The position numbers and the translations under genes are program-made. Source: Ridgeia piscesae (taxonomy: Eukaryota > Annelida > Polychaeta > Sabellida > Siboglinidae). Taken from it: a DNA stretch of 64,000 nucleotides. The notes below the pieces were generated by a model. The model had not been told where the DNA came from. It searched no databases and saw only the letters and a list, made by a program, of their open reading frames with translations. This document shows, piece after piece, positions 15,549 through 58,700 of the stretch. How positions within the stretch are numbered: position 1 is the stretch's first letter; each line of letters begins with the position of its first letter. The stretch is taken from contig JAODUO010000053.1 of the NCBI GenBank assembly GCA_025642075.2, forward strand, positions 1,869,501-1,933,500, in the 5' to 3' direction.

Positions 15549-16006
<458 letters not shown>

Positions 16007-16665: not shown

Positions 16666-19600
16666 AAGACTAATTCGCATTTGTTCGTTTTAATTGTGAG
16701 ATTTCCTTAAAATTTCAAATGGCTAATGAAGGATTTGTTATCTTCAGATATAGAACTTTATCAAGAGGATTCGCTGGATGATGGTACGTGTTTTATATTC
16801 CTTTAAGCAACATCCTTATCTCGCGAGTTTTTGTTTTTTGTGCATCATTGAAATATCTGCGCCATCGCGCATCATTTAAACGCTTACGTACACTGTAATG
16901 TGCTTCGTGTAGTCAGTATAACCGCACCCGTTTGATGCTACGATTTTCAAAGATCAAGAATATAGCATATTCGTGTATTGGTGAATACCACAGAGTCGGA
17001 AACGTGCGCGAGAATTGGGTCGATACGATACGGATTACAACAACCGTGCGCCAAATGGTCACGTGACCGCCGAGTTCCCTTTGACCTTCCTAACCTCGAA
17101 TGTTCGAACGCACTTTTTGTTATTATTTATTTACATTAATCCAGATAAACATAACCCATCCTATAATGTAGCAGCGACTGCAGATTATCTTATCAAATTA
17201 AACTGAATATATGAGCGTGATACTGATAATTCGCATGATTTGTAAAGCCAAACAATGGAGCCTGGAGGGACCTGTTAAAAGTAGGTCAAGTCCCGTGTGC
17301 TTCTGTTTTTGTTTGGATCGCGGGCTGTTGACGTGTTTATTTTTGTACCTGGCATTTGTTGGAATTGGTGAATGAAACATTTATTTATTTCTGAGTATGT
17401 AGTACAATCTTTTAGGGTGATGTGTGAAGCAACCTGTACTGGATCATACAAAATTAGATAGTTGACAGTGGCAGCGGAGTGGCTTGTGATGTGTGTTGTC
17501 ATTGTTCACTATTTGGGTGTTCAAGCCTGTTCACTGGCACTGGTGCACTGTTATGAGGATGCATATTAATTAAATGAATGAGTTTGAACGAATCATAAGT
17601 ATTTGTAAATTATATGCACGTTTTTATTGTGTGAATAAACAATTTAAATGCACATAAACTGTCACCAAGCTTGATTTGTTAGATCATATTTAAGGTTCAT
17701 TATTTTTGATAGTATTGTTTTAATACAAGCTTGGGTTATATTTTAAAGAATGTTTACTGATGAGATTATTGCAGCTTTAAATGAATTTTTTTGTTCTTAA
17801 TATTGGGTCTGTATTAGAAATGTTTATACAGTTATATTGTGTAACTTATTAACAATAAGGGCCTGTATTTAATTTAAGATTCATAAATAATATTAAAATG
17901 TCTTGTAATACTATGAATTGTTATTTGTACCATTATCCGGGGTTCATATTAACAGTCATTCACTCACCATTACGCATGCATGTCCGCACACACATTTTAC
18001 AGTTTTCAGTGTAAACATTTGCGCAACATTCTCCCATGAAGATGAGTACTTAAGTACGTATGTTATTTCAAAAAGGAAACTATTATCCAAAATTTACCCA
18101 GCTGCCAGTGAATCTGCTTATAAGAATGATTATTTGGAAAATTAGTGCACTTGTACCTATGATCCTCATTATATTAACACGGTAAGCACATTGTTTTCAG
18201 CTTTATTGTTGTTAGCATTAGCAGCTGGAGGATTATCTAAATATTAACAATTCAGGGTAATGCTGACAAGTCTGCATTTGTATGCAATTCTGACAGCAGA
18301 CGTCTCTGTTAGGACCTACAAAATTCTAATTGTGAAACCACTAATAATGCTGACAATGTCAAAAAAACTGTTTGTAGTCCCTTGATGATACATGTCCAGA
18401 AATGTAAGATTTGTTGAATATATTAATAATTGTCTAACGCAATTTATCACAGCCAGATTGGATGTACGATTATAAAATGTGAATGCTGTGTTAACTGTAA
18501 GGCATGAAGAGTTTATTAGCATGTCACAGCTCTGCCATTATGCATGATTATATGCAACAACCTAATTTATAATAAAAAATGAAAAGGTCTACATAGTTCC
18601 ATGTTAAACTAGATACAGCTAATTCAGTGCAATTGTTTGAATAGTCGTAACATCTTAAGGCTGTGAATAAGCTGCACCAGGTTTATTATTATCATTGAAC
18701 TTTGTTATACAGCTGCACTGCACTAGGCTTTGTTGTATTATATTGCCTTGTGGATGTGTTGTTTCATGATCGGTTGTATACAGGTTAGATTTGTTGTCAT
18801 ACGTGGTCTTTGAGTTTGACAGTAGTAATTAGTAAATGTCGCAAACTATTGACGCCCGTTATTGAGATTATTCTTGTTGTTCATGTAACCATTTTTGATC
18901 AGTTCATTTGAAAATTAGGAAATATAATATTTGATGGATACTGTTAATTAAAAAACAGTTTAGACGTAATAAGTAGTTTGGGACTTTTGCTTCATGTACT
19001 TTTTTATATGTGAAAATGAGTATTTTTCATAACAGGTCTAAAATCTGGCAAACTTTCATTTACTTGAATGTTATTTTGGATGATGCCCAAGAACATTAAA
19101 CTACTGAAAACGTTAAGCTAATGTAAGACACGTCTTCAAACAGGTATATGATTGGCTCACTCTTGTTTTAATGACATTCTGTTCTAAAATTTAATTTTCT
19201 CTTTAAAGTTTTTATTGATATGTATATTTAATGTGTTTATTTACTATTTATAAATCAGCTTTGTGTACTTTTTATTTATTTATAATATATATTTTATAGT
19301 TTTATTTAATTTAATGCCACTCTGTATAAAGAGTACAAGAGCATTTCTGGATGGATTTGGGCACTGTAAACATTCTTATAGTATTGGTATAATTAGTAGA
19401 ATAATTAGTACAAAGCAAAGCTTTATCTAGAAACATGGCGACCTGTCATTTGGAGGGGTGACGTCTCTTTTGGACGGGCAAAATGTGTAACTGGACGGGT
19501 AAACATTTGAGGAGCAATACACATGTAAAATATATGTCAATTATGCTTTGATAATGGGTGTCATATGTTTGCGTGGGTTATTGTGTATTACTAGACATAT

Positions 19601-22600
19601 ACTCGTCTAGAATGGCTTCTGTGTAAGCAAGTTTGGACGCATTTCTACTGGGACTTTTTTGGTCTGGCAAAATTATGTTATAGATAAAGGTCTGGTCTAT
19701 GTAGTGCAGGGCTTGACATTAACTCCCAGAAAGCAATTCCAGTACTAGGACAGTTGCGAGTTCAATTTATGGTGTTGGTGTTTTATGTTTAACTTGTTTT
19801 ATTGTGGGATGAGTTAATTTCTTTTGTAAAAAGTTAACTAGGAGATTGTTCAAACTGCTACAATAAACAGTGTATATTGCAACTCGTTTGGCTTGTCCCA
19901 TCTGACTTTCTGAGAAGAGCCCTGTATAATGTACTTGTCCGACATGGACAACTACATGTCCCGGGCAAGCCTCTGTGTTGAGCCCTGCAATGACATTACA
20001 CTGGCACATGAACAATTGGTATATTTGTATCTCAGATATCTTTCTTGTTCATGAATTCGGCAGTAACTAATTAGAGTCTGGTGGTAGCTTACACATATGT
20101 AATACTCAAATTTGGATGATTTTCACACCATGTTATGCTCTGAATTATACATCCATTGCTAAATGCTTGACTGGACATGTCATATGCAGCTGCTTCAGTG
20201 AACAATTATGTTATTCACCTTTCTGGTAAATACGACCTTGGTGGACTGATTTTATTCAGTGATTCAAAACCTTAATTTCTAAGACTACATTACCATCAGC
20301 AATAATGTTGCAAGACACCAGTTGGTTAGGATGCCTATGAAAGTATGAAATATTTTTTTTTTAATATTCATATACGTTTGTCAGTATTTTTTAATAGGCA
20401 GAGGTGGCATACCATGTTGAAAAAACAACTAAGCAGTATCAACTAATATGATTCATTGTTGTGGTTTGCATTTAATATATGTGGCTGTTTGTCCCAATAA
20501 AAATAAAATTATTAGCATACATCCACGCTGTAATTATTTGAGCTTTTTATGAAATACATATGGATTATATTAATCAATACGTACTTTAGTTATAATTTTA
20601 TTATGGCAGTGCTTTGTTAGCAATATAATGTATACATTATTCAATCCGTTCAGTGATCTGTGTCTGCCGTACACATTCTCAGTCCAACAGTGATGTTCCC
20701 CTAAATTTCAGATCAGCTGAGTCAGTAAGTGGTAACCCATGACTGAAGATCTGATGATGAATACATAACAACAATAAGTTGATAGATATGAAGAAAATTG
20801 CACTGCGTACCGCTCAGCCATTCATCAGTACTACATGTCTGTCCTTTGATGTGAGACGCCTGAATGCTTTATCAGTAGTTGTTGCTACACTTATTGTTCA
20901 TGCATGAGTGTGCCGGCGGTATGAATACTACAGGTCTCCTCATGCTCCATTCATGCAGCCACTTGGCTACACACCAGTGACACGGCGCTGCACCTCTTTA
21001 CCATTGACATGTTACATTACACTGTGTGGTTTTCCCCAACAGGAAGCTCCGGCGAGATGAGCTTAGATGACCTAGAATCACCGGAGCTTAACCTCGAGGA
21101 CGACTCGCAGGAGTGCGACCAGTGCAACCCAGATGACGACCTGTCGGCCATACAGAAGCTGGAGAGATATCTCAACAGTGAAAATGTTTACAGCAGGTAT
21201 TTATTGCGGTTCATTAGTCCATTTTAATTATACCGTCATGAACCTGTTGATGTATGATGTTGAATGCTTCATTTAATCCATAAGTAGTTGTTGAATTGTC
21301 TTTGTTTTTTATTTTACCATTTATTTACTGTTGGCCTGATGTCCAATTATTTAGTAGTTCACTGGTTTGCAGTGTACAGTTAAAATACAATGTTGAACTG
21401 ATAAAATTTTGAACTAGTTGGTGAGTTTTTACTTTTTAGATTGTATTGTGAATATTAAGAATATATTGTTTTTCTTATCATTGTACATAGACAGCTTTTG
21501 TTGTACTCAGCTACAATGGAACAATATATATATAAGCACTATCTTTAGAAGATGGTGGGTTCTAATGTCGTTACTGTTACCGATTTGTCTTTACCATGGA
21601 CCATGATACTCTACAGTCCTGATAAAGACTGGTGAAGACATGATACTGGTAAATGTAGTTTTTCATATATCACAGTAAGTGTCGACTTTCTATAGTTTGG
21701 CTCATTCAGGTGGAACCTTGTAAGTTACACGCTGGCTTGGATACCAACATGTCGTGACAACCAATCAGCTTTTCCAGTTGCTTTTACTCTTACTTGGCAC
21801 ATTTCACTAGAATTTTTTCTTGTTTGTTACATATTTGTTAATCATTTGTGGATGCAGTTTAATGCAATACTTCAGGGTGTGTGGCTCAGACTTGGTTCCG
21901 TAATCTGGATGTAGGTTATAAATAATTAAAATAATTCAGTTAAAAATAATTGGGCGACCACCCGGAATGAGAAAGTAATTACAGTTATATTAGTTATATA
22001 ACACCTGTTGCATTATTACCGATACTTGATAGCACTGGTGACAAAACTTAGTTATGCCCTCCTTCGACTGAATGTTTGCTAGATGAAAATAGATTTCAAT
22101 GTTAACCTGACGAGTAGGAAGTGTTTTTCTGCATTTGTAGCCATTGTGTGTGATGTGTTTGTTTGTAGACAAATGGTGGCTCGCAACCTGCTTGAAACAA
22201 TTAGGTGCGGTGAACCAAATGCAGAAAATGCCACAAAAGTACTGGAAGCAATGGCCCAGTTAGCAGAAGACCAAGGTGCTTTTTTGTGTGTTATATAAGT
22301 CATTTAACATTGTCAGCTGTTGTGTTTAATGCAATGGTAATAATGGATGTGATTGTCTTAGAAATTAGAATCATATTGACTACAAATCACTTCAACTTTT
22401 GACTGCAGTCAAAGTAGTGTTATTTTTGGCAGAATTAATATTGCTAAGTAATGTCCTAGATGTACACTCATTATTTATTGTAGATTGTCAATGCATACAA
22501 ACGTTATCTATAGTGTGGCTATACAACCACCCATGGCTGGTCTTCTGTTCTCATCTAATATGCATGTATAAATCTATATTTGATGGTGCTATTGGCAAAA

Positions 22601-25600
22601 CAAAACCAAAAAGTTGATGTAGTCATTGTCACCCGCCATTGCTAGCTTCACTAAAGTGGTGCAAAAGAAAAAAAATTACAATCATAGATAACAGAAAGCA
22701 AATGCAAAACGATTTGAATTAGCTATTTATGGAATGTAACTTTCCTGATGGAACAACGTGAACATTACCATTGCAGATCCGATGGTGCGCACAGAACTTA
22801 TGGAACAAGTTCCTCACATTGCAATGTTCTGCCATGAGAACGCCTCGCTGTTCCACGAAGACAAACCCATCTCCAGTTATATTCTACCAATCATAATCAA
22901 GTACTTGACATACACCAACAACCAGGTTGGTTTAAATGATGTGTTTTCACTCTTTCTTGCTTTCAATCGATAGTCTTGTTGAATGGATGTACAAATAAGA
23001 GCTTAGATTAAGTGGATGGTTTTGTTTTAAATGTGATTATGCTCTGCCAGGAGTTAAATTAAGTAAATCAGAAATCATATTGCAGGTTCGCAAGACAAGT
23101 CAAGCTGCTCTATTAGTGCTCTTGGAACAAGGTCTATTAGAAAAAGGTATGATTTTGAAATTCGTTCTTTTGCAGTTATTATGTTCTCCAATTTTACAGA
23201 TTTCCCATAATTATTTTACCTAAGAGAAATATTTCAGTGCAGGTAAGCACGTGAACATTTTATTTTGTGTTGAAGGTGTATACCATTTCTTGAGTTCAGA
23301 ATAATCAGAGAGAAAATAGTTTCCAGCATCATGATAGGTAGAGATTGTGTCACTGGACAGATTTCCAATTTTCCTTTCCGTTGCAGGATAACTATTACAA
23401 ATTTATAAATAATGTATTTTCTATGTGATGTTGTGAAAATGTAAACAAAGTCCGTTTGGTAATTGGAAATTAGATGTTCTGCCTTTAAGGCCAGATTTGT
23501 GATTGTGTTGCAACGCTGCTCTGGATTAGTATTTTTATGTGGTTTAGAAACCGGTAATTTTTGTCCTGTTGAATCAGTGGTCTATGTTACATTTTTAATA
23601 AGTGACAATACTTGATACTTCCCAGTTCCAAACCATCTAAAAGTCAACTAAATGCTAGACATTGAACACATGCATCAAATAAAGATTGGACCTGCGGCAC
23701 TAGGAAGAGCAAGATGTAATCCACAATATGGAACCACATCTACGTGTCTGCATTTCATGTATGCGGTGTGTCGAACTCATCGTCTCTGTGGAATAATTTG
23801 GATATTTTATTGGGAAACTATACAGAACATATAGCTTGTACCTGATGCTGTGTGTACAGAAGTAAGGTGCACGATGTGTTATTTACTGGGAGACATTTGT
23901 TTTGTCAGGTGACGTGGAGCAGCACGTGTGTCCTGTCATCATTGACTTGGCCTGTGCAGAGAGCCCTGATGACTTCCGCACCGAAGCTGTAGCGGTTGGT
24001 GGACTTAATTCTTTTGTGACCAATACTCGTTTCACGAATAAATGACAACTATGTCCAGTAATTAAAACACTCTGTCCACACAGTTTCAGTAATCTGCTGA
24101 CGATACATCAATTGCGAGTGCTACATAGATAGATATACACATATTGTTCTGGTCTTTGTTATCCAAGTCATGTTTCCCATAAGCCTGTGGTATAAATGTT
24201 TTTGTTTAAAGAGGTTGATTCAGAAAAAGTTATTACCATATCTGACATGTGCCGGGGATGGTGTTTGAGAAGCTGTGGAGTTCACAGAACTGTTTGTCTG
24301 GGCCATCTGAAAGACATGGGTAGTGAGATGTTGACAGTTGGATCATCTTACTATTCTGTCTTTCCAATGGAACAGATCTAAGTCTGCTGACACAAGGAGA
24401 TAAACAGCAGCGAGTAGACTCAGAGGCAATTAGAAAAGCCATAGATTTTGGTGTCGCCATTCAGGCATACCTCTGGAGTAGTAGCTTCCAGCTAGTTCTA
24501 CAGTCCAAGTGGCTGTGATCCGTGTGCTAACAAGCGTATCACAGCCTGCTTGGATCATAGAAACACTGCGAATGTCTTCAGTTGACGGTGTACATGTGTA
24601 TTGTACCAGTTACTATCACACACACTTGTCAAATGATGACTGTAAGCTTTGTAATAAGACGGACATTAGTATGTACATGATAGTAATAATAGACTTCTTT
24701 TGCGCCAACATCCTCGAAGATCAAGCTGAGTGGTGCGACAAAACGAAGTATTAAGCAAACTCGTAATCATAAAACAATGTGTGAGTCGTCAATGGATGGA
24801 TGAAGATGCTAGGAATCTAAGGAGGATAGGCAGCAATAAAGAAATAGGTTTTTAGACGTTGGCAGAATGAAACTATATTACATTCTGATTTAACACTGGC
24901 AGGAAGTGAATAGTCTATGTTTCACAATAGTAAAATGTGGTTGTATGATGGAGCAACAGTTTGAGAATGAACGTGGTTACATGGATGAAGACTTTGAGAT
25001 TGTGGGGTCGTCAAAGTGGCTGTGAGATGCTCAATCTACAGACATATCACAGCACGCTTTGATGAGCCCCATCTTCTTCATAGACAAACAGGACGTTTTC
25101 ACTTACATGTTGTGCTGCTCTGAAGATCAAGGTAAAATGTGGGCATTGGGATCTTGTGGTTCTTTGGCACAGATACCAACAATGGCTTTTAGTGTCGCTT
25201 CTGAAAGCATGAGGTGAATGAAATTGTGAAACCTTCAAAAACCTGTTGATGTGTCTCCATGGCGACGGTGTAGCTGACTCATCACAGTGGCTGTGATGTG
25301 TGTCTTATGCTATCATATCACAGCCTGCTTTGATGAGCCGGAACACTGCCTCTGTCAGCCAGAGGAACATGTCCAGCCAAACAACTGACCATGACCAGTG
25401 ATCCAAGCCGGCTAGACATTGGAGGGAGAACTGACCAGAATACAGCTGTCAAAGTGGCTGTGATGTGTTGATCGTATCGTATCACAGCCAGCTTTGATGA
25501 GCTGCTGTCTGGTGTATTACTGCAGTCTTCAGTGACTTCTATCTCTGAAGACACTCAGGAGGTGTAGATTCATTGTGTCTGTATTTATTGTGTATTTATT

Positions 25601-28600
25601 GTGGCCTTATCAAAGGAAAGGTGTAATACATTGAGATGCCATATCAACAAAAGATTATTTCTGACAAATAAAACTGAATCACAGTTATAACATATATACT
25701 TATGTTTATCCTCTTTCTAACACACGATTGTTTTATATATTTATAAAACAATCGTGTGTTAGAAAGAGGATAAACATAAGTATATATGAACGTTATGATA
25801 CTTACGTATCATTAAAACCAGTTGCAGTGTTAATTTTCAAAGTCGGCATGATTTTAGATCTTTGATGTGATGTGTGTTGTGGTGATTGTCAGTGATGCTG
25901 GACTTGTTGTGCGCATTGAAGCGACTGTGAAATGGTACGTTGGACTTCATATCACAGCCTGCTTTGATGAGCATAATGTCCTTGAGCGACATCTGCAGAC
26001 TCTATAGTGCACCACCACGGCATATTACAGCAGTTTTATATTTGGCAGATCTCCATTCAGAAGTAAGATGTGTTTGTAACTGGGTTCGTCTGTATCATAT
26101 GCATATCATGTTATTATATCACTAGGGAGTTAAATGAAATGAAAGACTGATGATTATCAGTAGCAGCTGCAGTAGTAGACCACTTGCAGTGGATTACACA
26201 TGTTGAACAAGTAACAATTTGATAGGAATTTTACTCTTAAAAGTGCTTACTATTTTATTCTTGCCAAAGTTTTAAACTGTTGCAAAATTTGTATGGAATT
26301 TATACAGGCACGGCTGACTTCTAATTTCTAATTTACTTTTATATATAATTTAATGTATATTTATTTCTTGTAAAACACTTAAGGAAACTGCATGGTGTGA
26401 CTATTGTTATACTCTGTCTGTTGTGCAGCTTATGAGCAAGATGGCGCCACTTGTTGGTGACGACATGACTTGCAGAATCTTCCTGCCCCGGTTCGCAGAT
26501 ATGTGCACAGATACACTATTCCATGTGAGAAAGGTAGGCACAGCTGTAAGTGGTTGTCATGCCTAGTCATGATTTAGCTGTCACAAACTGCAAACAATAC
26601 CTAAGAGAGGAGTGTAGAGTCTTCGTGCTCTTTGACCTCGTAAATCTTAGTAAATTTAGTGTTTTATCTACTGCTGCAGATGATATAGCAATGATTGTGC
26701 TACAGTGTTAGTTCCAAAGTTACGCTTATAGCCTCCTAACCCTGAGATAAATATAAGCATTGCTTGGCCACCGATTCTGGGGCATTCATTTCAGACATTG
26801 CATTCTTGTAAACAGTGTTTATGTGTGGCAGGTGTGTGCGGCTAACTTTGGTGACTTGTGCAGCGTTGTGGGACAAGACAGCACAGAAGCACTGCTGGTG
26901 AGAACTACCCTCAGTCCCTTACACTCTCACAATGTACATGTCTGTTTTCTCTGTACACAACCAGTTTACTAGATGTTTTGTTAAACGTTTTTAAACTGGA
27001 ATACCTGCATTATCATGTAGCATAATAGCAATTGTACTGGAAGGATGTTTTTTTCTTTGCAATGGGAAGTTAAACAATAATAGTTTTATTAGTATCATGT
27101 TGTCGCAATTGTAGTTATAGGCAGGTCAATGTCTGAATATAATTATAATAATTTTATATATATAGTGCCATATGAAATAATAATGTTATCAGTTAGAAAC
27201 GTGTTATCAGTTAGAAATTATTGAGTAGACATGTCGTGTTTGCGGTGTTCCAGCTGCCCAAGTTCTGCTTCCTGTGCGAGGACGGGGTGTGGGGAGTGAG
27301 GAAGGCATGCGCCGAGTGCTTTACACAAGTCGCCTGTGCCTGCTCCACTGACGTCCGCCGCAAAGAACTAGCTCAGACCTTTCTGTCCCTCATCTGTGAT
27401 CAGTCGAGATGGGTAAGTGGCATGCCATATATTGTGCATGTTTTGCCAGTCGGTGGCTTTGAATGAATGTAGCCCATTTGTTCAGCCCTTATTGTGCTTG
27501 ATTAGAACTCTAGACTACCCTTTAGATTCTTATTGATAAGACACAAACAAGGGTGCTCACTCTAGCTCATGGTAAGGAAGATTTGGAGTCCTTTCCTGGC
27601 ATATACGTGTCACCGTCATCACAGCAAGTTATCTGTGGTTACATTGCTAGGTGTCCATGATCCTGACCATCATTTATTCTTTCACTTCAGGTTCGCATGG
27701 CAGCCTTTCAAGCTCTGGGAGGATTCATTGCAACATTCGCAGACTCTAGTATGACAGGGTTATATTTCAACGAAGAGGGACTATTAGTTGTTAGCAAGGC
27801 ACATGACTGTAGAAGGTGAGTTGTCTTTACAAATGACTGCACCCTTTTCTAGTCATGACTGGGTGAGTCTCCAGCTGTTCTGTATCTGTGTACAGGGAAT
27901 TCAGTAAAGACATTAAATTGGCTCTGTATCTTGTCTGTTTGGACCTTAAAGTATAATTTATTGATTTGAATAGTCGGTGGATATTTAGTAGCTTGTTTTG
28001 GACAAAGTTGGTTACGGAAGTTCCACTACTGGTGCATAAATTGGCAATGGATCAGTCAGAAATGTCACCAGTGTTTTGTTATCTGAACAGTGATCAAGCT
28101 TTGACAGTGTAAAAGGTGTTGTGTTGGTACACTGTAGTGTTGGTACGCTGTAGTGTTGGTACGCTGTAATATTGGTACGCTGTAATGTTGGTATACTGTA
28201 GTGTTGGTACACTGTAGTGTTGGTACGCTGTAATGTTGGTATACTGTAGTGTTGGTACGCTGTAATGTTGGTATACTGTAGTGTTGGTATGCTGTAATGT
28301 TGGTATACTGTAGTGTTGGTACGCTGTAATGTTGGTACACTGTAGTGTTGGTACACTGTAGTGTTGGTACACTGTAAGTGTTGGTACACTGTAGTGTTGG
28401 TACGCTGTAATGTTGGTACACAGTTGTGTTGGTAAGACCACAATAAGGGGTTCATCTGCCATTCCCTGATGGAAGAGTACCCTATAGAAATAGCGTTGTG
28501 CAGGCAGTCTGAATTTGAGGACATATAGTGTTGAGTGAGTAGAAATTAAATTTTTGTGCAATGTGGCATCAGAGCTGTTACATGACAGTTGGCGGTCTTT

Positions 28601-31600
28601 CTGCTTATTGATACTGGTGTCATGTTGATTGGTGATGTCAACATGACAAATAATTGTGTGACGTGTGACATTGTGTCAGGTTTCAAAGCGGTTTGTAGGA
28701 AACTGAGGTATTAAAATGTCACAAATTGTCCATGGCACATCTGTCATTGAAGGTACGTGTGACGTTTTAATAACAATATAAATTTTGTAGGAAATGAAGG
28801 AAACATTATAATGGCTGCCTGGTCAGATGGTATAGTCAGATGTGTTCATTGTTGTAGAATGTGTTTTGTTGACTTCTCACCATGTGACTGTTGTAGCAGT
28901 GACGAGGATGAGTGTGATCCACCAGTCTACAGCGACTGTGACAGCTGCGAGGACACGCCAGACCCGTCACCCCCGACGTCACACACTGCCCCTGACACCA
29001 AGGAAAGTAGCACCGAGCCGGGACAGTTGACATCTGACATGGACGTGAGTTGTGAGGTAGACGACGTGGCTGGCGACACAAACATTAACAATGCAGGTGG
29101 TGACGTATCTGTGGAGGAGAGCAGGGCGCAGAACTACAAGGGTCTTTCAGAGGGTGAGAAGTCACCGGACAGTGGCGAGACAGCTGCTGCAGCTAGTCAC
29201 GGGAGTGAGGCTGCGGAGGTGACGCAAGACAGGAGCAACCTCCCGTCGAATGACGGTGATGCGAAAGAAGTGCATATGGCGCCCGAGAAAGAACCAACGG
29301 AAGAGTTCAACTCGTTTCTCTATTGGCGCACGCCACTGCCGGATGTAGACATTACAGTTGCAGCAACCGATGATGACACATCTGCTGTGACAAGGTCCAC
29401 AACAGTACCTGATGAACTCCATGACGAGACGGCAACGAAAACACAGTCGGAGGTGACTGTTGGTGAATGTTCCAATGACACGGATAGAGAACTATCAGAG
29501 AATGCGGCCAGGCTAGAGATTGGCACGAGCAGCAGTGATGCGACTGTGGTGAAGGACGCTACCGAGCCAACTGGGGTCGTAGTGCACACAGCAAGTTTGA
29601 TCACAACGGAAGAAGAACCAACGGAAACCGTCGCTCACTTCGGCACGACTCACGTCCTCGGTGAACATGTCGGGGAGTTGGCTATGAAGGTTGTAGATGG
29701 CGTTGTACAAGGTGAGAGCACAAATGTGTCTTCTTAGTTCCTGCCTTGCGTGTGGTCCTGTCACTGTCTGTATTCATAAGACATGACAAAATATGTTGTT
29801 ATAAATAGAAACTGATGGCAAATGGCTATGAGAAAGGTATTGAAGAAGATTATAACGTCAGTTTTCATGTATTTACTGTCAGATATGCTGCACTACAGTT
29901 TATTTAGAGGTACCTCTGGGTAAACTTGAAAATATTTAGATGTATTATGGGTTATTGTAACTAACAAACAAAACAAAAAATATAGTTATTGTTCATGTAA
30001 AAAGATAAACTCTTAATTAAGAGTTTGTTGATTAGAAAATGTGTTTTATAGATTTCTCAGACACGAATATGACTTACTCGTTAGTGGAGGACAAACTGTG
30101 TGCACGAAGAGACAGCTCAAGTAGAGAGGACGACATGTCAGACGAATTTCATCCAGACCAGGTCTGTTTCCGTACATCATTTATTACTAGGGTAATCAAA
30201 ATCTCCATCGGTCAAATGCTCTCAGACCCAGGGGCTCTTAAAATACTGGCATTTCATGTCGAGCGTAAGTGTCGGTTTGTAACTTGTTCACAATGATGTG
30301 CATGTGTTCTGTGAACCTATGTTCTAAGCCTACATGTAATGTAAATGTTATTTCACCAAACGAAATACATGAGTAGCCATGGTTACAGTAAGATGAATAC
30401 TGCATAATCAGTGAGGACGGTGATTTGGCTCTCGTAGATGCCATGCAGTAAGCTGATCATCTGTTTAATGAATTTCTCAGACATCTCGATAACCTCCTGT
30501 CTTGTATGAATTAATTGTATTCTGGTGCCTATCCCTTAAACAAACCCGAATCCCTTTCAGGACGTCATACCCCAGGTGCTTCTTGACCAATATCTCAGCA
30601 TGACTGACCCGGCGCGTGCACAGACAGTGGACTCGGAGATAGCCAAGCACTGTGCGTACAGCCTGCCTGCCGTCGCCTACACACTGGGCAGGAAGTACTG
30701 GCCATGTCTGCGGGAACTCTATGAGACGCTTGCTGCCGACATGCAGGTAGTTGTGGTCATGTACTCACACGCTGTCACTAGTGTAACAAATCCTCACCCA
30801 GTGCCAGCATAATTGGTGTATGAGACTTGGGCTAAAGAGTTGGTAGACCTACATTAATGTAAACCACAGTGCATTGTCAGTTTTGGAAGTGCACATATTT
30901 GTAGTTTTCTGACAAGTAGGCCACTTCTGGGCGGCAGTAAATTTAGGCTGTTGTAACAGTAGCACGATGGTAATGACTATATTATCCTGGCGTTGTGGAC
31001 AGATAAGAATTGAAGGATTAACAATATGTCAAGCACTCAAAGTGTGAAGTGAAAGTGATGTATAATTTATAGGAGATAGAAACAGAACTTTATTATTTAT
31101 ACGAGATGGAAACAGTCTGCTATGCCTGAGTACCTGCTTAGATTTAGCACTTGGCTTATTGTGTTTCTTGTGTGTACAGTAAGTGAAACCGTTGTAATGT
31201 AAGAAAGTGTGTTGTTGTTAATATTATAATCCTATTGTGTTGTTAATCCTGACATTTAACATGTTGTTTTGTGATGAAAATATCACCTGGCTGGTAAAAT
31301 GACTGATTTCCCAATCGTCCTTGGTTCTTACCAGTGTGATGTGTCTTTGTAGTGGAAAGTCCGACGCACACTCGCGTTTTCCATCCATGAACTGGGGATG
31401 ATACTTGGTGAAGAAATCACAACTGCAGATCTTGTGCCAATCTTCAATGGCTTCCTGCGAGACTTGGACGAAGTACGGGTTGGTGTACTCAAACACCTTG
31501 CCGACTTTCTTAAGGTGGGTTACACTCGTGTTTAGAAACAAAGACAGCAGGTATCGCTTGAAACAGAGGCAACAAATGTCATTTGTTTAGTCAACAAGGC

Positions 31601-34600
31601 TTTGTGTAGAAAATTTGTAATTCATAATTACCACAAAATCAGTTTTAGATGATCTTTGTATGTCAGTCGTAAACGCGTTTGTGTTGTACACGGTCAAATT
31701 GCCTGTATGGAATGCTGCATTTCCAATATGAGATTTAGATGTCACATTTACATACTCAGATTAAATTGAAAAAGAAATGTGACTCTCCACACAGCCCATC
31801 TTGACTGAACTGTGTGTGTACATTTGTATGTGTGTGTATCTTTATTCATGTCCCATGTTCAGTATGTATTTGGCATAAGTCTGTCAGACATGACCATAGT
31901 GATATATGTGATCAATATTGACATGTGGTTAGACAGTCAAGTGTGACGATATTGTCAGATATGTTCAAAATGCCAAATGTGACCACGTTGTCGGGTGTGG
32001 CCGTTGTCTTGGACCGTACTGCTGAACAGAAGTTAAGTACGTTTGTCACTGTCTTGCAGTTGCTCAAGCCGGAACTGCGACGTGAGTACCTCACGAGGTT
32101 GACAGACTTCCTAAACACTGATAACAATCGGAATTGGCGTTTTCGTGAAGATCTTGCCGAGTACGTATAGCATGCTGTTGTAATCGTTGCTAGAACTTTC
32201 TGATCAGTTGTTAGGTAATGCAGAAGGGATTCATTGTTACTGTAGATGTTCACTAAATGTTTGTGTTCATCGTGGAATCTACTGTGATTTTATAATGAAA
32301 TAAACTAAGCAAATGAGTGCACTGTAGTTGCAAATTTGGCCTCCAAAGCTTGCCTTAGGAAGAATGGAAATCATGTCTGTGTCTTTGCCGTGGTAAAATT
32401 CTGTTATGTGAATTACAGTTTAAATTTTTGAAAGGGAGTTGGCTATAAACTGTTTTTATATGGATTTGCATCAAATGTAATAACCATGATAAAGCATGTA
32501 TTTTTGCTGCTGACTGTGTTAGTGTTCTTGCTGACTGTGTTAGTGTTGTTGCAAGTGTCCAGGAGGCATCAACTGTGAGTTGTTGTTGCAGGCAGCTGGG
32601 ACTGCTGGTAGAGCTGTTCTCAGCGGATGACGTCAGTCTCTACATGCTGCCCATTGTCTTCACACTTGCCTATGATAAAGTTGCTCAAGTCAGATTGAAG
32701 GCATTCAGTGCGGTATGTAAGCGTCTCTGTTCAACTGGTGCTTTGTGTCTGTTGGACTTTCCTCTGAAACTAAATGACATTCGCACCCACCAAGCATTAT
32801 TGTAGGTCTTCTATTTCCGCCAAAATTTTGAAAGTAATATGTACACATCTTGTATGATTTTAATTGAAGGCCAGAGTGGCTTTATTTTTTACCATCGATG
32901 ATCCCACATGCCTGTCTCGTCCATCCATTCCTCCTCCCTCTAACTGTCTCTAGCTCTCCACTTCCCTCTCAGTCCTGCCCAGTTTGTCTTCACGCAGTTC
33001 TCACTTGCTGTCTGCCTCTTGCTGTAATCCACCATGTGTTAGTGGTTCCATTTCCATGCATCCAAACACTGATGCCTCATCAACTTCCTGCTCAGACTTG
33101 AAATACTTGTTGTTGTTTCAGATGAGTGTTGTGATGAGTCATCTGGCCGCTGACGAAGACAAGGAACTACTACAAGGCTACATTGCCGACTTGATCGACA
33201 AGTTCGCAAGCAATAAGCGGTGGACGCACAGACAGGCGTAAGTGAACGTCTTCCATTGTTGGGTCGTGCTCATTATGTGTTGACTTGACATGATGCATGA
33301 CGTATTGATTGTCTTACTGCCACAACCGGTGATTAATTACATAAAATGTCACTACATTTTACAAGAGGATATAAACCCATCCATGCATTTTGTACGTGCT
33401 TGAAACAATGCCGACTTCAATATCATGTTTGCATTGTTTTCATGTTGCAAGTTTTGGTCTGTCAGTAGACACCCAGATGACAGTTCAAACACGTTTTGCT
33501 AGAGTAATATTGTGTGTATCATGTATCACAAGAGCTAGAATATAGAAGTTTACTAATTGTCTATGCAGTTGCCTGGGAATGCTTGCAGTTATGACAATTA
33601 TTTGTCGGCATGCATGATTCAAATGTTTTTATATTTGTAAATGATTACTTACTGAAAATGTGTTATGTCATTATGGATAGAGGCAGAGAATGATGGGGTG
33701 GAATTTCCTTACACAAACTGTCCTGTATTCGGTAGGTTTCAACACATATGTTATTGTATCCTGGACGACGAATCGTTAAGCCGGGATAAAGTTACCGAAG
33801 AACTCTTACCAGCCATGTTGAAAATGGCATCAGACCCGATCGTGAACGTCCGAATTACACTAGGAAAGACGTTGGCCCACCATGTGATAACTTCAGGTTG
33901 GTTCACTCGGATCGTAGATCCATAAGATGTTTTGCAATGAATAAACCCATGTAAATTTTGTTCAACCATGTGTCGTCATATACTATATGTAATCATTATC
34001 GGAAATCTACCTAGCTTCAAAAATAGATGCATATCCATTCTAGGACCATGATATAAATAACTTTCTTATTTTAATTTGTACTTGTGTCACAGATACAAGA
34101 AGACTTCACCATGCCATGTATATTTTAAGCAAATTCAAATATGTGTATGAGATGACCAGCAAGATTTATTAGAAATTTGCCTGGGTTTGCAGGAAATATT
34201 GATTGTGATAAATTGTACATATGCAATTGTAGAAATATTAGAAATTTACCCATATGTCCCAATCAGTAATAAAACATGTATAAGTATTTATTAATGTTTA
34301 TAAATTTATAACTTTTTGTTCTCAGCTGATTTATATTTGTTATTGTTTTCTTTCATTCTTGAGTCTTATTTAATCATAACACACATCTACGTGTGCCTGT
34401 GTGTGTGTCGTAGAAGTGGCTGTAACAAGAGACGCGTGTTTCAGACTACTTCATGAGTGCAGACAACCCCCACTTAGGGGACTTGTTGAATGCGGTGCAG
34501 GCACTGCGGTCAGACGGTGACCGCGACGTGTGTTGCTTCATGCACTGGGCACCCGAGTCTGACCACCTTGGTCATCCCGGTCACCCTGGCCACCCTGGTC

Positions 34601-50593: not shown

Positions 50594-53500
50594 TCAGCAG
50601 CCGTCCTCGTCTGTTATCCCTGGGAAGAAGTAGAGAGGGAGCCTCAGTGAATGTCTCACTTCTGGCATCTGGACCTTGTTGCAGTCCTCGTATTTGTGAG
50701 ACCGGGAGAGTTTGCGTGATACGATATTGTTGACCTGAAACAATGGTTATTACGGTTAAAGGTACGATATCTAATTGACAATTTGCAGTGAATAGCTAGG
50801 ATATTTTCCAGGAAGGACATGACCAAAGAGGCAGAGATTGCTAATGTTTGTCAGTTATGGTATGTTGTGTCACACACTGTTGCATGTTCCATTTGTCAGA
50901 TGTTGAACTTAACTTGGCCGTAGGTTGTGGTTTTCTGCCCTATATCCTTGCAGCGTAAACAGACACAAATACCAGTTTGTTGTTTTTTGTGGGCCTTCAA
51001 CATATGTACTGTTCTATTCAGATTTGTATCTTTAAAACTATTTACAAAACATATTCCTACTGCACATGCATATTATATGGAACTCAACAAAAACATACTT
51101 CATTAGAAACTTGTAACAACATCAAATGTATATTTTGTAGTTCTCTTTATGTAAACCTCAGAACTCTCTGAATGACAGCCATACTGATCCACGGACGGAA
51201 CCATAGATGAGTACTTCATGTTTGGTCTTCGAAGGTCTCCCTTACCAAGGATGGAACCATAGATGGGTACTTCATGTTTGGTCTTTGAAGGTCTCCCTTA
51301 CCAAGGATGGAACCATAGATGAGTACTTCATGTTTGGTCTTCGAAGGTCTCCCTTACCAAGGATGGAACCATAGATGGGTACTTCATGTTTGGTCTTTGA
51401 AGGTCTCCCTTACCAAGGATGGAACCATAGATGAGTACTTCATGTTTGGTCTTTGAAGGTCTCCCTTACCAAGGATGGAACCATAGATGAGTACTTCATG
51501 TTTGGTCTTTGAAGGTATCCCTTTCCAAAAATTGAACCATAGATGAGTACTTCATGTTTGGTCTTTGAAGGTCTCCCTTACCAAGGATGGAACCATAGAT
51601 GAGTACTTCATGTTTGGTCTTCGAAGGTCTCCCTTACCAAGGATGGAACCATAGATGAGTACTTCATGTTTGGTCTTTGAAGGTCTCCCTTACCAAGGAT
51701 GGAACCATAGATGAGTACTTCATGTTTGGTCTTCGAAGGTCTCCCTTACCAAGGATGGAACCATAGATGAGTACTTCATGTTTGGTCTTTGAAGGTCTCC
51801 CTTACCAAGGATGGAACCATAGATGAGTACTTCATGTTTGGTCTTTGAAGGTCTCCCTTACCTTGTGAAATGTGATTATGATTTTTTTGATCAATATTGC
51901 TTGATATTTTATCTACCAAGTCCATCATTGCCATATAAGTAGAGTAATTTTCCCTAAATCCATATTGTTTATTTGATAGTATGTTACATTCAGCTAGGAA
52001 TTTATTAATCCTATTGTACATTAGGCGCTCAAGTATTTTTGATAGACATGGATGAATCGAAATAGGTCTGTAATTTGTAAACAGTTCAGGGTTTTCACTT
52101 TTGTATAACGGAATAACTTTAGCAATCTTCAACTTTCTTGGAACAATACCCATAGTAAATGAACTATTGAAGATGTGAGCTAGTTGATTTTACAATTTGT
52201 AGAATAACATGTTGAATAAAGTTTGGGTCAATGTTGTCATAACCAACCTCCTTATACTCTCTTACACCCACTGACAGAACCTGTCGTATTTACAGTGGCG
52301 TCACCTAGTGGACTAATCACCATCCAAACTGTCAAAAGCAACAGAAAGTCCCTAAAGAAAGGCTATGCATATCAAAAACGAATAACTCCGAATAACTAGT
52401 TTTCTGAAATGCATTTTAGAAAACTATTATAGTTATTTCAATTTGTACCATTTTGTGTTGGAAATAAATTACTGATTAAATGAACATTTGGGAGAAATAG
52501 AATAAGAAAACAATATTAACATAGCAACCATCATGCATCAAATCAATTTTTTTATAGTTGAAATATTGTTTTAAACAACCACTCCATACTGGCATGTATA
52601 TTGATGTAACATCGATGTTTCTCAAACCACAACATGACTGTGACTGTAATGTCCTGATCCTTACTCAGAATATTTTATTTAAAGGTGACATCTAAGGGGT
52701 TCGGTGAATAAATCACCTATGGTTATGACTGGTGAACAATTCCCTACATCAACCAATACCTTCGTCATCAGTTCGTCGATGTTCTTGGTCGCCGCCAGCT
52801 CCATGAAAACCTGCACGATGGCGCTGATGTACCAACTGCCCTTCTTGCAGTTTCGCCACGCCTTGTACCCTAGGAACAGACCTTCACTTACAATGTCCTA
52901 AAAACTGACATCAGTTCTTACAATTCCACTAAGTACCCTCACATATCTTCATGCACTTACAGTTCCACTGAGTACCCTCACATATCTTCCCTTACAGTTC
53001 CACTGAGTAACCTCATATATCTCCACTTACAGTTCCACTGAGTACCCCCAGATATCTTCATTTACAGATCCACTGAGTACCCTCAGATATCTTCACTTAC
53101 AATTCCACTGAGTACCCTAAGATATCTCCACTTACAGTTCCACTAAGTACCCTCAGATATATTCACTTACAGTTCCACTGAGTACCCTCAGATATCTTCA
53201 CTTACAGTTCCACTAAGTACCCTCCAGATATCGTCACTTACAGTTCCACTAAGTACCCTCAGATATCTTCACTTACAGTTCCACTAAGTACCCTCAGATA
53301 TCTTCAATTACAGTTCCACTAACTACCCTCCAGATATCTTCACTTACAGTTCCACTAAGTACCCTCAGATATCTTCACTTACAGTTCCACTAAGTACCCT
53401 CAGATATCTTCACTTACAGTTCCACTAACTACCCTCCAGATATCTTCACTTACAGTTCCACTAACTACCCTCCAGATATCGTCACTTACAGTTCCACTAA

Positions 53501-55695
53501 CTACCCTCAGATATCTTCACTTACAGTTCCACTGAGTACCCTCCAGATATCTTCACTTACAGTTCCACTAACTACTCTCCAGATATCTTCACTTACAGTT
53601 CCACTGAGTACCCTTCAGATATCTTCACTTACAGTTCCACTAAGTACCCTCAGATATCTTCACTTACAGTTTTTAATAAGTTTCCCTCAGATATCTTCAC
53701 TTACAGTTCCACTGAGTACCCTCCAGATATCTTCACTTACAGTTCCACTGAGTACCCTCCAGATATCTTCACTTACAGTTCCACTAAGTACCCTCCAGAT
53801 ATCTTCACATACAGTTCCACTGAGTACCCTCAGATATCTTCACTTACAGTTTTTAATAAGTTTCCCTCAGATATCTTCACTTACAGTTCCACTGAGTACC
53901 CTCCAGATATCTTCACTTACAGTTCCACTGAGTACCCTCCAGATATCTTCACTTACAGTTCCACTAAGTACCCTCCAGATATCTTCACGTACAGTTCCAC
54001 TGAGTACCCTCAGATATCTTCACTTACAGTTTTTAATAAGTTTCCCTCAGATATCTTCACTTACAGTTCCACTGAGTACCCTCCAGATATCTTCACTTAC
54101 AGTTCCACTAAGTACCCTCCAGATATCTTCACGTACAGTTCCACTGAGTACCCTCAGATATCTTCACTTACAGTTTTTAATAAGTTTCCCTCAGATATCT
54201 TCACTTACAGTTCCACTGAGTACCCTCCAGATATCTTCACTTACAGTTCCACTGAGTACCCTCAGATATCTTCACTTACAGTTCCACTGAGTACCCTCAG
54301 ATATCTTCACTTACAGTTCCACTGAGTACCCTCAGATATCTTCACTTACAGTTCCACTGAGTACCCTCAGATATCTTCACTTACAGTTCCACTAAGTACC
54401 CTCCAGATATCTTCACGTACAGTTCCACTGAGTACCCTCAGATATCTTCACTTACAGTTCCACTAAGAACTCTACAAACAATCCTACAGACAGATATCTC
54501 CCCTATATATTATACAACAAAAATGTTTTGTATTCAATACTTGTGTGGGACTTTTATAACGCCCAGTTCTAACATAACTACCGGGGTATACAATACTAGC
54601 ATGTATCAATGTGTATTAATACCAGCGTCATCATTAAGTGCACAACTGGAATTATATTTTATCTTTGCGAAATGTGTCAACCATCACAATGTCATGTTTG
54701 AGGACTTTACAAACTGATGCGACATCCTCTTGATATCACCACAACTCACAAGAGGGCGCCTGTGTGAACTGACCTGGTTGCGATGGAAAGCCAACCAGGA
54801 AGTCAGCGTGGGACGGACAGTCTGCTACATCTGTGTCAGCAATATCTGAAGAACAAACTTACGTTGACCATACAAACTTAACTTGTATTACATCTCAAAC
54901 AAGATTAAACATAAATTTTGTATTAATGCTGGTATATAATCAATATAATTATATTACATACATGCTGAAACAGCAACCAAATTTTAACAAAACTGGTAAT
55001 AACTGATAAAAAAAAATGGAAGAACCTATTGATCAACCTATTGCTGTCATAATCTGATACATTGCTTTATAACAAATGATTCTTGGCATGTTCTTATTGG
55101 TTTCTATTTCTTAAAAAACAACCTTCTTATTGTTTAAACATGAAAACCTAGAAATGTAAGGAAAATGCATAATCAGAATCAGAGGAAGTCCAAGAAACAC
55201 GTCAACAAGAAATGAAAAAAACACAGATTAAATAACAAATTAACAACAACAGGAATGCAAAGCTTGACATTTGAATTCTGGTACCATTCGTCAACACATC
55301 CGATAGACACTACAGTATGTATTGCCCATCACCTAACCTCCTCGACAAGCCTCAAGAAATATCAACTTTGGCTTGTCTTTGAGTGCCCTGCAGCGCTTTG
55401 CATCGAGGTGGTATTTTAACTCAGCCACTGGCAGTAGTTTGCCATCTGTCCCATAGATGGCACCGTTTTCACCGTGACTCAGCACGCACAGCACACAGCA
55501 CTGTGCACGCTGATGTCCTGGCTCAGCCGCAAACTGAATCACCTTGTCCCGAATCCCCTGGTGATAGGAAGAAAGACGGGACAGAGCATCATATTGCGGC
55601 CAAACAAACAGCAGCAATACGTGTGTTACTCCTAGACTGGATTGGAGGAGATGGTGGACAGATGTGTTTGTAAACCAGACCATACAAGTTATATA

Positions 55696-55731
<36 letters not shown>

Positions 55732-58700
55732 TGGTGGTGTGTGGTGTGGTGTGTGTGTGTGTGTGTGTGTTGTGTGTGCTTGTGTGTGTGTGTGTGTTGT
55801 GTGTGTCTTGTGTGTGCTTGTGTGTGCTTGTGTGTGCTTGTGTGTGCTTGTGTGTGTTATGTTACATTATAACATTTTAAATGTTCCACTACAACATTTT
55901 AAATGTTTCATGACAACATTCTAAAGTCTCCTATTTAACATTTATTTTACATCTTGCACATTTTTGTTGTGCAAATATTTGAAACTGTTTTGGAATAGGA
56001 AGTAATGTTGGTTTCTATAAAAATGTGACCTAAGCCACTGCACACATATCTTATAGTCTACATCAAACCAGCATAAATTTGAACAAACTTACAGTGACCA
56101 AAGCAAACACATATATTGCAATCTCAGCAGACTGCCAACAAAACATGTAACTTGTTTGATTTAGACAGATGGTGAGACTTGAGTGAAACAGAAATGCTAA
56201 ACACTTGTAAACCTGACAAATGCAACATCAAAGTCTGTTAAATATGTAAATTTAAGAAATATTATTATATTACTAAACACATTTTTATTTGACACATTCC
56301 CCTAATGGTCTGACGGTCATTCTCACCTGGACGGTGAGGTCATCCTCGTCATTGTAGACAACCACCTGAAAGCCCAATTGTACCCACAGATGCTGCAGGT
56401 TCTCACAGTCGATGTCTGTGCCTGCGCGGTCGTCTGTGCCAACCACATGCTTCACATTGATGATACATGCCAGGCCTCGGCATGGCACACACATTGGGTA
56501 GGCCTGGAATAGACAGGGACAAGACAATGTCAGTGTACGTGTGTGTGTGTGTGTGTGCGTGTGTGCGTGCGTGCGTGCATGTGTGCGTGTGTGCGTGTGT
56601 AAAATGTAAGTTTCAGATATGTTTGGGTGCTTGCACTGTGCATGCATGCGTGTGCGTACGTGTATGCATGTGTATGTATGTGCATGTGTGCATGCGTGCA
56701 TGTGTGTACATGTGTGTGGTTGTCTTATCTTTTAGCTGAACCTTTAGCACAACCTAGTAATCACTCCATGGGCACGAGTCTCACAAGAATGGAATCATAT
56801 ATTTTCCTTGCTGGGAAACTAAGAGTACATTCTTATTTGAACTTCATACAACATGATCTATGAGCTATTCACCTCTCGGAATTTCTTTTCGTAAAATTCC
56901 GGTGTGCTCTGATGCACACGGACTGAGATGGGACCATCATTGATGTCAATGCCTTCGTCCATGTCCTCTTCCTCATCATTTTGCGTCGCATCTTGTTTGC
57001 GCGCCTTCTTTCCTACAACGACATAAACAAAAATAAAAAAATCCGTATAAAAACACGCTATGCACTCTAACACGCTATGCACTCTTGATGAAATGTTTAA
57101 AAAAAATAATTCATTTTTTTGCCACATTCTGATAGCTTTCAACAGAACAAAAAATACACTTTTGTAAGTATTACATGGTATAAATTCACTTTTATTCGTA
57201 GATATGCTGCCACTGTTAAACAAACAATACCTCTTTTCAATACATTTTTCATGGCTGATTTCTCAGAAATTGTAGTATCTTGTTTATACTTCTCTAAGCA
57301 ACACATTTGTTTAAAGGTTGTTGAAATATTTGCTGCCAGTTTTATAACAGAATTTATACTGAACATGATTTTCACTGTATGGTTATCTTTTAACTTACAT
57401 AGTTCCAGGTAAGTGCAATTTGTTTTGTTTTGACTGTAGTGAGTCTAGTTACTGATCAAAACCTGACTAAAGATATAATAAATAAATGTATTATTGCAGA
57501 CAGATCCCTAGTTTCCATAGAAACATCTAAAGCCTGCCACCTGAAATAAATTTGGCAAACTTGATTATTTATTTGTGTCGAGTCCTAACAGAATGAGACA
57601 CGTGTTCAGAAATAAAAATAGTAGACATACCATTGGATGGAATATATACTAAGTGTTCCAATGGTGCATAGACCATTGACCTAGCTCACTCTAGCCAAAG
57701 TGAACATGATTGGGTACGAACGTTTAAACTGAGAAAAATACATTTGAAGTTCAAAATACACTCCTAAGTCATGGTCATTATCAAATATATATTCTATTTA
57801 GGCACTGCTATTGCCTAAAATTTACAACATTTAAGAAATCCAGTGCCACAATCAGACAGTAGACATTCTGGGCTTTCCTTTAGTACCATACTTCTCCACC
57901 ATGCAGCGAGGGATGCACAAAATAAGTGACTGAACAATTGCAAATTATCGGTCCTGTTTTACAGAATTCATGCAAGAAATATTACGTAATCGTTCTAAAA
58001 ATGTAAAAGGTAGTAAATATTATGAATGACAAAAAGGCATTGCCAGTTGATAGAAAAGTCATTAAAGTGTCATTTGGTGAAAAAAATATAAATCATTGTA
58101 TATTACCATGTCAGTGTTTTCTTGAAATAAAATGTTGTACATGCGACTAATTTTGTTGCAACTCGACTCATTTGTAGTGTTGTAGATTCAATAACTTTGA
58201 TTTAACCTCCACTGTTACCAACTGCATGCAGGTTCAACATAAATACAAAGTTATGACTTCAGTTTCAAGAAAATACAAACATTTTAACACCCTAAGAACA
58301 CAACATTTAAAAAGTAGTAATGAATTAACTGCAAGAAACAGAGTCTTTCAGACATCCAAGAAAACACAACCCTTGAAACCTGTGGATTCCTCGACACTTA
58401 CTTGGTGGTTCTTCTTCGGTTTTGGCCAAGATGTCTGGCTTGAGATAGTCCTGGACAATCCTCTCTTGGTCACTTGCTATTAAAGCTTCACACAAGTCGT
58501 CGAAAGCATGTTTACCACGTCGTGGAATCAGGTCGAGAATTATTTCGACCTGCTCCGCTCTCACTCTCTGTCCGTTCAGCTGGCAACGTCAACAAGATTT
58601 AGAACTGAATTTTCTTCATTTTACAACTATTAAACCAAAGTGGTCTATTTTCCTAAATTAATATGATGATGGTATACTTCCGGCCAAGTTATGTTAAACA

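What the first reader, a model, noticed from the sequence alone, without database searches (positions are those of the whole stretch)
24298..25978. Intronic mir-71/mir-2 cluster (1+5 hairpins) in sense inside PPP4R1
One mir-71 and five mir-2 hairpins lie within 1.7 kb of a single PPP4R1 intron, in the host orientation. Seeds and star-arm pairing are visible directly. The mir-71/mir-2 linkage is established for protostomes. The PPP4R1 host intron means co-transcription with a phosphatase regulator. One copy (hairpin 1) has a different 3' half with a co-varied star arm.
Basis: partly seen in the sequence, partly recalled or inferred. Interest (0 to 1): 0.75.

Follow-up and report, generated by a model that had tools for sequence, protein, structure and literature searches.

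The report
mir-71/mir-2 microRNA cluster in PPP4R1
A well-known group of invertebrate microRNA genes sits inside an intron of a phosphatase-regulator gene, where it has already been described in oyster and in the worm C. elegans; the sequence reading is correct, and the arrangement is conserved rather than new.

Summary
One mir-71 and five mir-2 hairpins lie on the + strand at 24302-25976, all inside one phase-0 intron (23995-26428) of PPP4R1 (no second copy found), in the same orientation. Rfam passes mir-71 and four mir-2. The fifth ("hairpin 1") scores below cut-off, but its predicted product matches the known mollusc miR-2d at 21 of 23 bases, so its "different 3' half" is an old paralog. 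All six fold far better than shuffles, and the mir-2 stems covary.

PMC4138081 (oyster) reports six mir-2 in a PPP4R1 intron, notes C. elegans mir-2 in ppfr-1 (the ortholog), and suggests ancestry. In C. elegans mir-71 is also in ppfr-1, but in another intron than mir-2, and both have intronic promoters. Co-transcription with the host is therefore plausible (oyster best r = 0.93) but not shown here.

Two additions. The same genome carries a second, unlinked group of four mir-2-like hairpins, each below the Rfam cut-off, with no mir-71 or PPP4R1 found nearby. A 47-bp perfect inverted repeat, found nowhere else in the assembly, sits between mir-2 copies 4 and 5; its nature is unresolved.

The parts
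21057..23994 (+). PPP4R1 exons 1-5 as drafted: 21057-21196, 22169-22275, 22777-22925, 23086-23146, 23909-23994 (5' UTR exons not mapped)
   Evidence: frame-consistent joins with GT donors and AG acceptors; tblastn with scallop and oyster PPP4R1
23995..26428 (+). Host intron, phase 0, 2434 bases, between ..RTEAVA and LMSKMAP..
   Evidence: the joined residues EAVALMSKMAP are contiguous in PPP4R1 proteins P0002, P0007, P0019, P0028, P0049
24302..24372 (+). mir-71 hairpin; predicted 5p arm product TGAAAGACATGGGTAGTGAGATG from 24308
   Evidence: 65.9 bits; 23 of 23 identical to bgl-miR-71-5p as printed in PMC7328434; fold -40.4 kcal/mol, z -6.64
24490..24565 (+). mir-2 hairpin 1, miR-2d type; predicted 3p arm product from 24537
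   Evidence: Rfam sub-threshold, 31.9 of 45.5 bits; 21 of 23 identical to lgi/cgi-miR-2d; fold -34.9, z -6.12
25004..25071 (+). mir-2 hairpin 2; predicted 3p arm product from 25045 (TATCACAGCACGCTTTGATGAGC)
   Evidence: 47.5 bits; -41.2, z -7.57
25275..25342 (+). mir-2 hairpin 3; predicted 3p arm product from 25316
   Evidence: 58.8 bits; -38.2, z -5.58
25442..25506 (+). mir-2 hairpin 4, miR-2a type; predicted 3p arm product from 25480, first 21 bases identical to bgl-miR-2a-2-3p as printed in PMC7328434
   Evidence: 60.6 bits; (-38.1, z -6.20)
25691..25788 (.). 47-bp perfect inverted repeat with a 4-base loop, between mir-2 hairpins 4 and 5; probably not part of the miRNA cluster
   Evidence: fold -71.2, z -19.2; no second copy found in the assembly
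25909..25976 (+). mir-2 hairpin 5; predicted 3p arm product from 25950, same as that of hairpin 3
   Evidence: 49.7 bits; -29.0, z -4.46
26429..34557 (+). Remaining PPP4R1 exons as far as mapped (26429-26533, 26832-26897, 27254-27412, 27691-~27780, ~28907-29716, ~30561-30746, ~31353-31514, ~32060-32161, ~32593-32715, ~33122-33235, ~33764-33889, ~34444-34557); the first three are splice-checked, the rest approximate

Best explanation
This is the conserved protostome mir-71/mir-2 microRNA cluster in what is probably its ancestral place, inside PPP4R1, in a spiralian animal (mollusc, annelid, nemertean or the like). The intron is transcribed either as part of PPP4R1 pre-mRNA or from a promoter inside the intron. 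Drosha cuts six hairpins out and Dicer makes one miR-71 (from the 5' arm) and five miR-2 products (from the 3' arm, seed AUCACAG) that repress mRNAs. Shown: hairpins, family membership, strand, host intron, host found once in the assembly, paralog structure. Inferred from the family: processing, expression, target repression, shared transcript.
For: Rfam matches, five of six over the curated cut-off. Shuffle controls and strand energies. Mature sequences exact or nearly exact to those reported from small-RNA sequencing of other molluscs and to miR-2d as tabulated in PMC4941716. Stem covariation over nine mir-2 copies from this genome: 89.3% of cells paired, 23 cells with both sides changed against a shuffled mean of 9.4, 0 of 500 shuffles as high on these two measures; 8 and 9 of 500 shuffles reach the observed number of pairs changed on both sides and of further pair types; slid versions 32-46% paired. 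Host gene by homology and splice-consistent exons. Same host in oyster and C. elegans.
Against: No small-RNA or RNA-seq data could be consulted, so no hairpin is shown to be expressed here. Hairpin 1 is below the Rfam cut-off, and the minus strand of hairpin 3 scores higher with the mir-2 model (38.4) than hairpin 1 does (31.9). Hairpin 5 is the weakest fold. The RNA spellings searched for hairpins 3/5 (22 bases) and 2 (21 bases) were found in no held paper, although papers listing them only in supplements would not show.
Confidence: 0.95

Rival explanations
1. The cluster is transcribed mainly from its own promoter inside the intron (for example the 307 bases between the upstream exon and mir-71), so that the host intron is only a conserved location and not an expression unit.
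For: C. elegans mir-71 and mir-2 lie in different introns of ppfr-1 and their upstream intron pieces drive different reporter patterns, mir-71's only partly overlapping the host's (PMC2835999, passages). In PMC3410857 (passages) a ppfr-1 deletion did not reproduce the genetic suppression seen with loss of mir-71.
Against: Oyster PPP4R1-intron mir-2 levels correlate with the host, best r = 0.93 of six (PMC4138081, passages). No promoter evidence was obtained in the window.
Confidence: 0.4
2. Some of the five mir-2 copies, above all hairpin 5, are decaying pseudo-hairpins that are no longer processed.
For: Hairpin 5 has the weakest fold (-29.0, z -4.46) with internal mismatches. A miR-2f copy without reads is reported in liver flukes (PMC4405270, passages).
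Against: Hairpin 5 passes the Rfam cut-off at 49.7 bits and its predicted product equals that of hairpin 3.
Confidence: 0.1
3. Chance hairpins or a repeat family that happens to resemble mir-2.
For: Hairpins as stable as the weakest one occur at 12 other places in the window; the motif TATCACAGC occurs once more on the + strand, at 18445, and once on the - strand, at 35205. The RF00047 control search rang, below the cut-off, in 1 of 14 control genomes.
Against: Neither of the two extra motif sites folds (z +0.81 and +2.12). Rfam E-values of the five matches run from 8.6e-12 to 4e-6, six hairpins lie in one intron on one strand, and the stems covary.
Confidence: 0.01

Closest known systems
Oyster (Crassostrea gigas) PPP4R1-intron mir-2 cluster, PMC4138081
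   Same: Same host gene, intronic, several tandem mir-2 copies; miR-2d present in oyster
   Different: Six mir-2 reported there, five here; mir-71 is not named in that paper's main text (0 occurrences), here it is in the same intron. The other oyster mir-2 is in SMC4; here the second locus is a group of four
C. elegans mir-71 and mir-2 in ppfr-1
   Same: Both families inside the PPP4R1 ortholog, sense strand
   Different: One mir-2 only, and mir-71 and mir-2 lie in different introns
Flatworm miR-71/miR-2 clusters (schistosomes, opisthorchiids)
   Same: mir-71 with mir-2 copies; more than one cluster per genome
   Different: There both clusters carry a mir-71; here the second group has none detected. 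No PPP4R1 host was named in the passages seen
Drosophila mir-2/mir-13 clusters
   Same: Same mir-2 family, intronic
   Different: Hosts are spitz and CG7033 and mir-71 is lost

Membership tests
mir-71 (Rfam RF00832) | Covariance-model score over the curated cut-off of 50 bits | tested here: met
   65.9 bits, full model 1-73
mir-71 (Rfam RF00832) | Conserved 5p mature sequence | tested here: met
   23 of 23 identical to bgl-miR-71-5p
mir-2 (Rfam RF00047) | Covariance-model score over the curated cut-off of 45.5 bits, hairpins 2-5 | tested here: met
   4 of 4: 47.5, 58.8, 60.6, 49.7
mir-2 (Rfam RF00047) | Covariance-model score over the curated cut-off of 45.5 bits, hairpin 1 | tested here: not met
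   31.9 bits, model positions 7-64; assigned to the family by its miR-2d product and seed instead
mir-2 (Rfam RF00047) | Covariance-model score over the cut-off, four hairpins of the second locus on C148 | tested here: not met
   44.7, 43.3, 27.5, 26.9 bits: 0 of 4
mir-2 (Rfam RF00047) | 3p product with seed AUCACAG | tested here: met
   5 of 5 in the window and 4 of 4 in the second locus
miR-2d | 3p sequence UAUCACAGCCUGCUUGGAUCAGU | tested here: met
   Hairpin 1, 21 of 23; differs in the last two bases
Expressed miRNA gene (small-RNA criteria) | Reads with uniform 5' ends and star reads with 2-base overhangs | not testable with these tools
   No small-RNA data available
Protostome mir-71/mir-2 cluster | mir-71 upstream of and close to tandem mir-2 copies, same strand | tested here: met
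   Six hairpins within 1.7 kb, all +
PPP4R1-hosted cluster | All hairpins inside one PPP4R1 intron, sense strand | tested here: met
   Intron 23995-26428
PPP4R1-hosted cluster | Same intron position as in oyster or C. elegans | not tested
   No animal gene structures could be fetched

The most novel reading that the evidence does not exclude
In this lineage the mir-2 family has split: one cluster stayed with mir-71 in PPP4R1, and a second group of four mir-2 genes, with its own 3' halves (..UUUGGUC..) and possibly shifted target choice, moved out of the host to an independent locus without mir-71. This would be a separate case from the flatworm duplications, in which mir-71 went along.
Probability: 0.5. 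Interest if true: 0.35.

Novelty: new member of a known kind. Interest (0 to 1): 0.25.

Why it matters
It adds one more spiralian genome in which mir-71 and several mir-2 copies share one PPP4R1 intron. Together with oyster and C. elegans this supports an ancestral protostome location. The contrast with C. elegans (two introns, two promoters) makes it testable whether sharing one intron goes with shared expression. The second mir-2 group, if real and expressed, is a natural test of what happens to copies that leave the host.

Tried and rejected
Rejected: the idea that hairpin 1 is a new variant (it is miR-2d); further mir-2 sites at 18445 (+) and 35205 (-) (neither folds); a further known miRNA in the intron (no other Rfam match over cut-off; sub-threshold hits to unrelated miRNA families around 25686-25792 reflect the perfect inverted repeat; in my own scan of the intron the hairpins listed besides the inverted repeat and those overlapping the six are -24.0 kcal/mol or weaker, list cut at 19); the inverted repeat as a copy of a repeat family (no other place found in the 628-Mb assembly, though that search skips very common words); a PPP4R1 duplicate as host of the second mir-2 group (all 11 PPP4R1 matches are on C53; no PPP4R1 match in C148:76001-124000). 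Seed-complement sites for miR-2 and miR-71 were counted over the whole + strand of the window, not the 3' UTR alone: 11 and 7 against about 4 expected for each from base composition. Three of the 11 are star arms of hairpins 1, 3 and 4 and one of the 7 is the mir-71 star arm; the other 8 and 6 were not followed.

Led nowhere: a PDB sequence search with one PPP4R1 exon and Pfam scans of single exons (no match over a curated cut-off). The main comparative paper on the miR-2 family (10.4161/rna.19160) is not held.
Full report
What is there. The window holds one mir-71 and five mir-2 hairpins on the + strand between 24302 and 25976. Rfam's curated cut-offs pass mir-71 (65.9 bits) and four mir-2 (60.6, 58.8, 49.7, 47.5 bits), and nothing else in the 64 kb. 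The remaining mir-2, hairpin 1, reaches 31.9 bits against a cut-off of 45.5; minus strands of the mir-2 hairpins score up to 38.4 bits (hairpin 3), each below the + strand of the same hairpin. All six fold as single hairpins with z-scores of -6.64, -6.12, -7.57, -5.58, -6.20 and -4.46; in each case 0 of 200 shuffles folds as well. By energy the + strand folds better than the - strand in 6 of 6; by z-score the - strand of hairpin 4 is better (-7.35). As a control, 22 of 12,260 folds of eighty-base windows outside the intron (both strands, 12 places) are as good as the weakest of the six, so folding alone would not carry the case.

Covariation. Nine mir-2 hairpins of this genome (five here, four from a second locus) were aligned. 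For the RNAalifold consensus, 89.3% of cells form standard pairs, and 23 cells are changed on both sides with the pair kept, against a shuffled mean of 9.4 (0 of 500 shuffles as high). For the number of pairs with such a change (9) and for further pair types (24), 8 and 9 of 500 shuffles reach the observed value. Sliding the partner by 1-3 columns gives 32-46% paired. The structure was derived from the same alignment, so the slid comparison is favoured by construction, and related sequences can exceed shuffles without structure.

Hairpin 1 is miR-2d. Its predicted product agrees at 21 of 23 bases with lgi-miR-2d and cgi-miR-2d as printed in PMC4941716 (passages). The same sequence core is printed for Tegillarca and Biomphalaria (PMC3972184 and PMC7328434, passages). 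In oyster, miR-2d is reported to target CgIkappaB2 (abstract and passages). So the different 3' half is an old paralog and not a local oddity. Hairpin 4 gives the standard miR-2a sequence (first 21 bases as bgl-miR-2a-2-3p), hairpins 3 and 5 share one predicted product, and hairpin 2 has its own. The spellings searched for 3/5 and 2 were found in 0 held papers; supplements were not searched.

Host. Nine drafted exons join in one open frame of 321 codons, with AG acceptors for exons 2-9 and GT donors for exons 1-8; the end of the ninth is not resolved. The joined protein (later exons approximate) has 1523 relatives at E <= 0.001, of which 120 were listed; most of the named ones are annotated as PPP4R1, for example scallop Mizuhopecten, 47% identity over 99% of the query. 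tblastn with scallop and oyster PPP4R1 lays the exons out in order on the + strand. The intron 23995-26428 (phase 0) separates ..RTEAVA from LMSKMAP.. The residues EAVALMSKMAP are contiguous in five of the ten relatives whose sequences were inspected; a sixth (Biomphalaria) reads EAAALMSKMAP, a seventh (duck) reads EAVAIMCKMA, and for three my text search found no such stretch and they were not looked at further. No second PPP4R1 was found in the assembly: all 11 matches lie on the window's contig.

Organism. Of the first 40 PPP4R1 relatives listed, 37 are from molluscs, annelids, a nemertean or a brachiopod, two from fishes (one of them marked as unverified contamination, and first in the list) and one is unnamed; further down the list vertebrates and echinoderms dominate. 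I take it to be a spiralian; the species is not determined.

Comparison with print. PMC4138081 (2014; passages) reports six mir-2 in a PPP4R1 intron in oyster, notes that C. elegans mir-2 lies in ppfr-1, the PPP4R1 ortholog, and suggests that this may be the ancestral organization; it gives r = 0.93 as the largest correlation of these mir-2 with the host, and strong co-expression for 21 of 76 miRNA/host pairs in all. PMC3410857 (passages) places C. elegans mir-71 in a large intron of ppfr-1. [quoted passage not shown] PMC3763532 (passages) gives the view that mir-2 arose within the mir-71 transcript and that mir-71 was later lost in Drosophila. Searches for mir-71 + mir-2 + PPP4R1, mir-2 + PPP4R1 + intron and ppfr-1 + mir-71 listed no further paper on this host, judging by titles and abstracts. 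That says nothing about subscription journals.

How it most likely works. The intron is transcribed, Drosha and Dicer release miR-71 and five miR-2 products, and these repress target mRNAs. The sequence shows hairpins, strand, host and paralogs. Expression, processing and targets are inferred from the family. Whether the transcript is the host pre-mRNA or starts inside the intron is open: oyster data favour the first, C. elegans data the second.

A second mir-2 locus. The genome search with RF00047 (60 of 138,085 first-look candidates scored) found, besides the four window hairpins over the cut-off, two matches on contig C148 at 44.7 and 43.3 bits, just below the cut-off; its control search also rang, below the cut-off, in 1 of 14 control genomes. 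The surrounding 18 kb hold four mir-2-like hairpins on one strand (44.7, 43.3, 27.5 and 26.9 bits; none over the cut-off, and the 26.9-bit one scores higher, 35.8 bits but also below cut-off, with the mir-2944 model), at C148:104112-105862, and no mir-71 match up to E 0.5. The only mir-71 that RF00832 found in the genome is the window's (60 of 76,650 candidates scored). All four fold as hairpins, have the AUCACAG seed and carry ..UUUGGUC.. where window hairpins 2-5 carry ..UUUGAUG... No PPP4R1 exon was found in C148:76001-124000. SAM-domain exons (+) lie upstream; exons (-) downstream resemble SBF transporters, just below Pfam's cut-off. Whole-hairpin identities between the two loci are 54-68%, overlapping those within each locus, so no one-to-one pairing shows. 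Four spellings covering the four products were found in 0 held papers.

An inverted repeat in the cluster. 25691-25737 and 25742-25788 are perfectly complementary over 47 bases with a 4-base loop. With arms of 28 bases or more and at most 400 bases apart, it is the only one in the window besides a TA run, and no second copy was found in the assembly. It could be a fold-back error of the assembly, a recent inverted duplication, or a source of small RNAs. None of these was tested.

Verdict. The finding is real and well read. It is a new member of a known, already described arrangement, with modest interest.

Noticed in passing
L008:8112-9862 (G000:C148:104112-105862): A second, unlinked group of four mir-2-like hairpins on one strand (each below the Rfam cut-off), with no mir-71 and no PPP4R1 exon found nearby; products share the seed but have other 3' halves.
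   Followed up: partly
window 25691-25788: A 47-bp perfect inverted repeat with a 4-base loop, between mir-2 hairpins 4 and 5, no other copy found in the assembly.
   Followed up: partly
window 55333-55866, - strand: Caspase-domain exon (Peptidase_C14, E 2.3e-17), about 20 kb beyond the mapped PPP4R1 exons.
   Followed up: no
window 51776-52189, - strand: Fragment of a reverse transcriptase (RVT_1, E 2.7e-7), probably a LINE-type element.
   Followed up: no
window 15550-16000: Long CA/TG dinucleotide run, open in several frames.
   Followed up: no
L012:2463-8646 (C148): A stretch of several kb that is open in many frames with short repeated peptides, so probably a tandem array, upstream of the second mir-2 group.
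   Followed up: no
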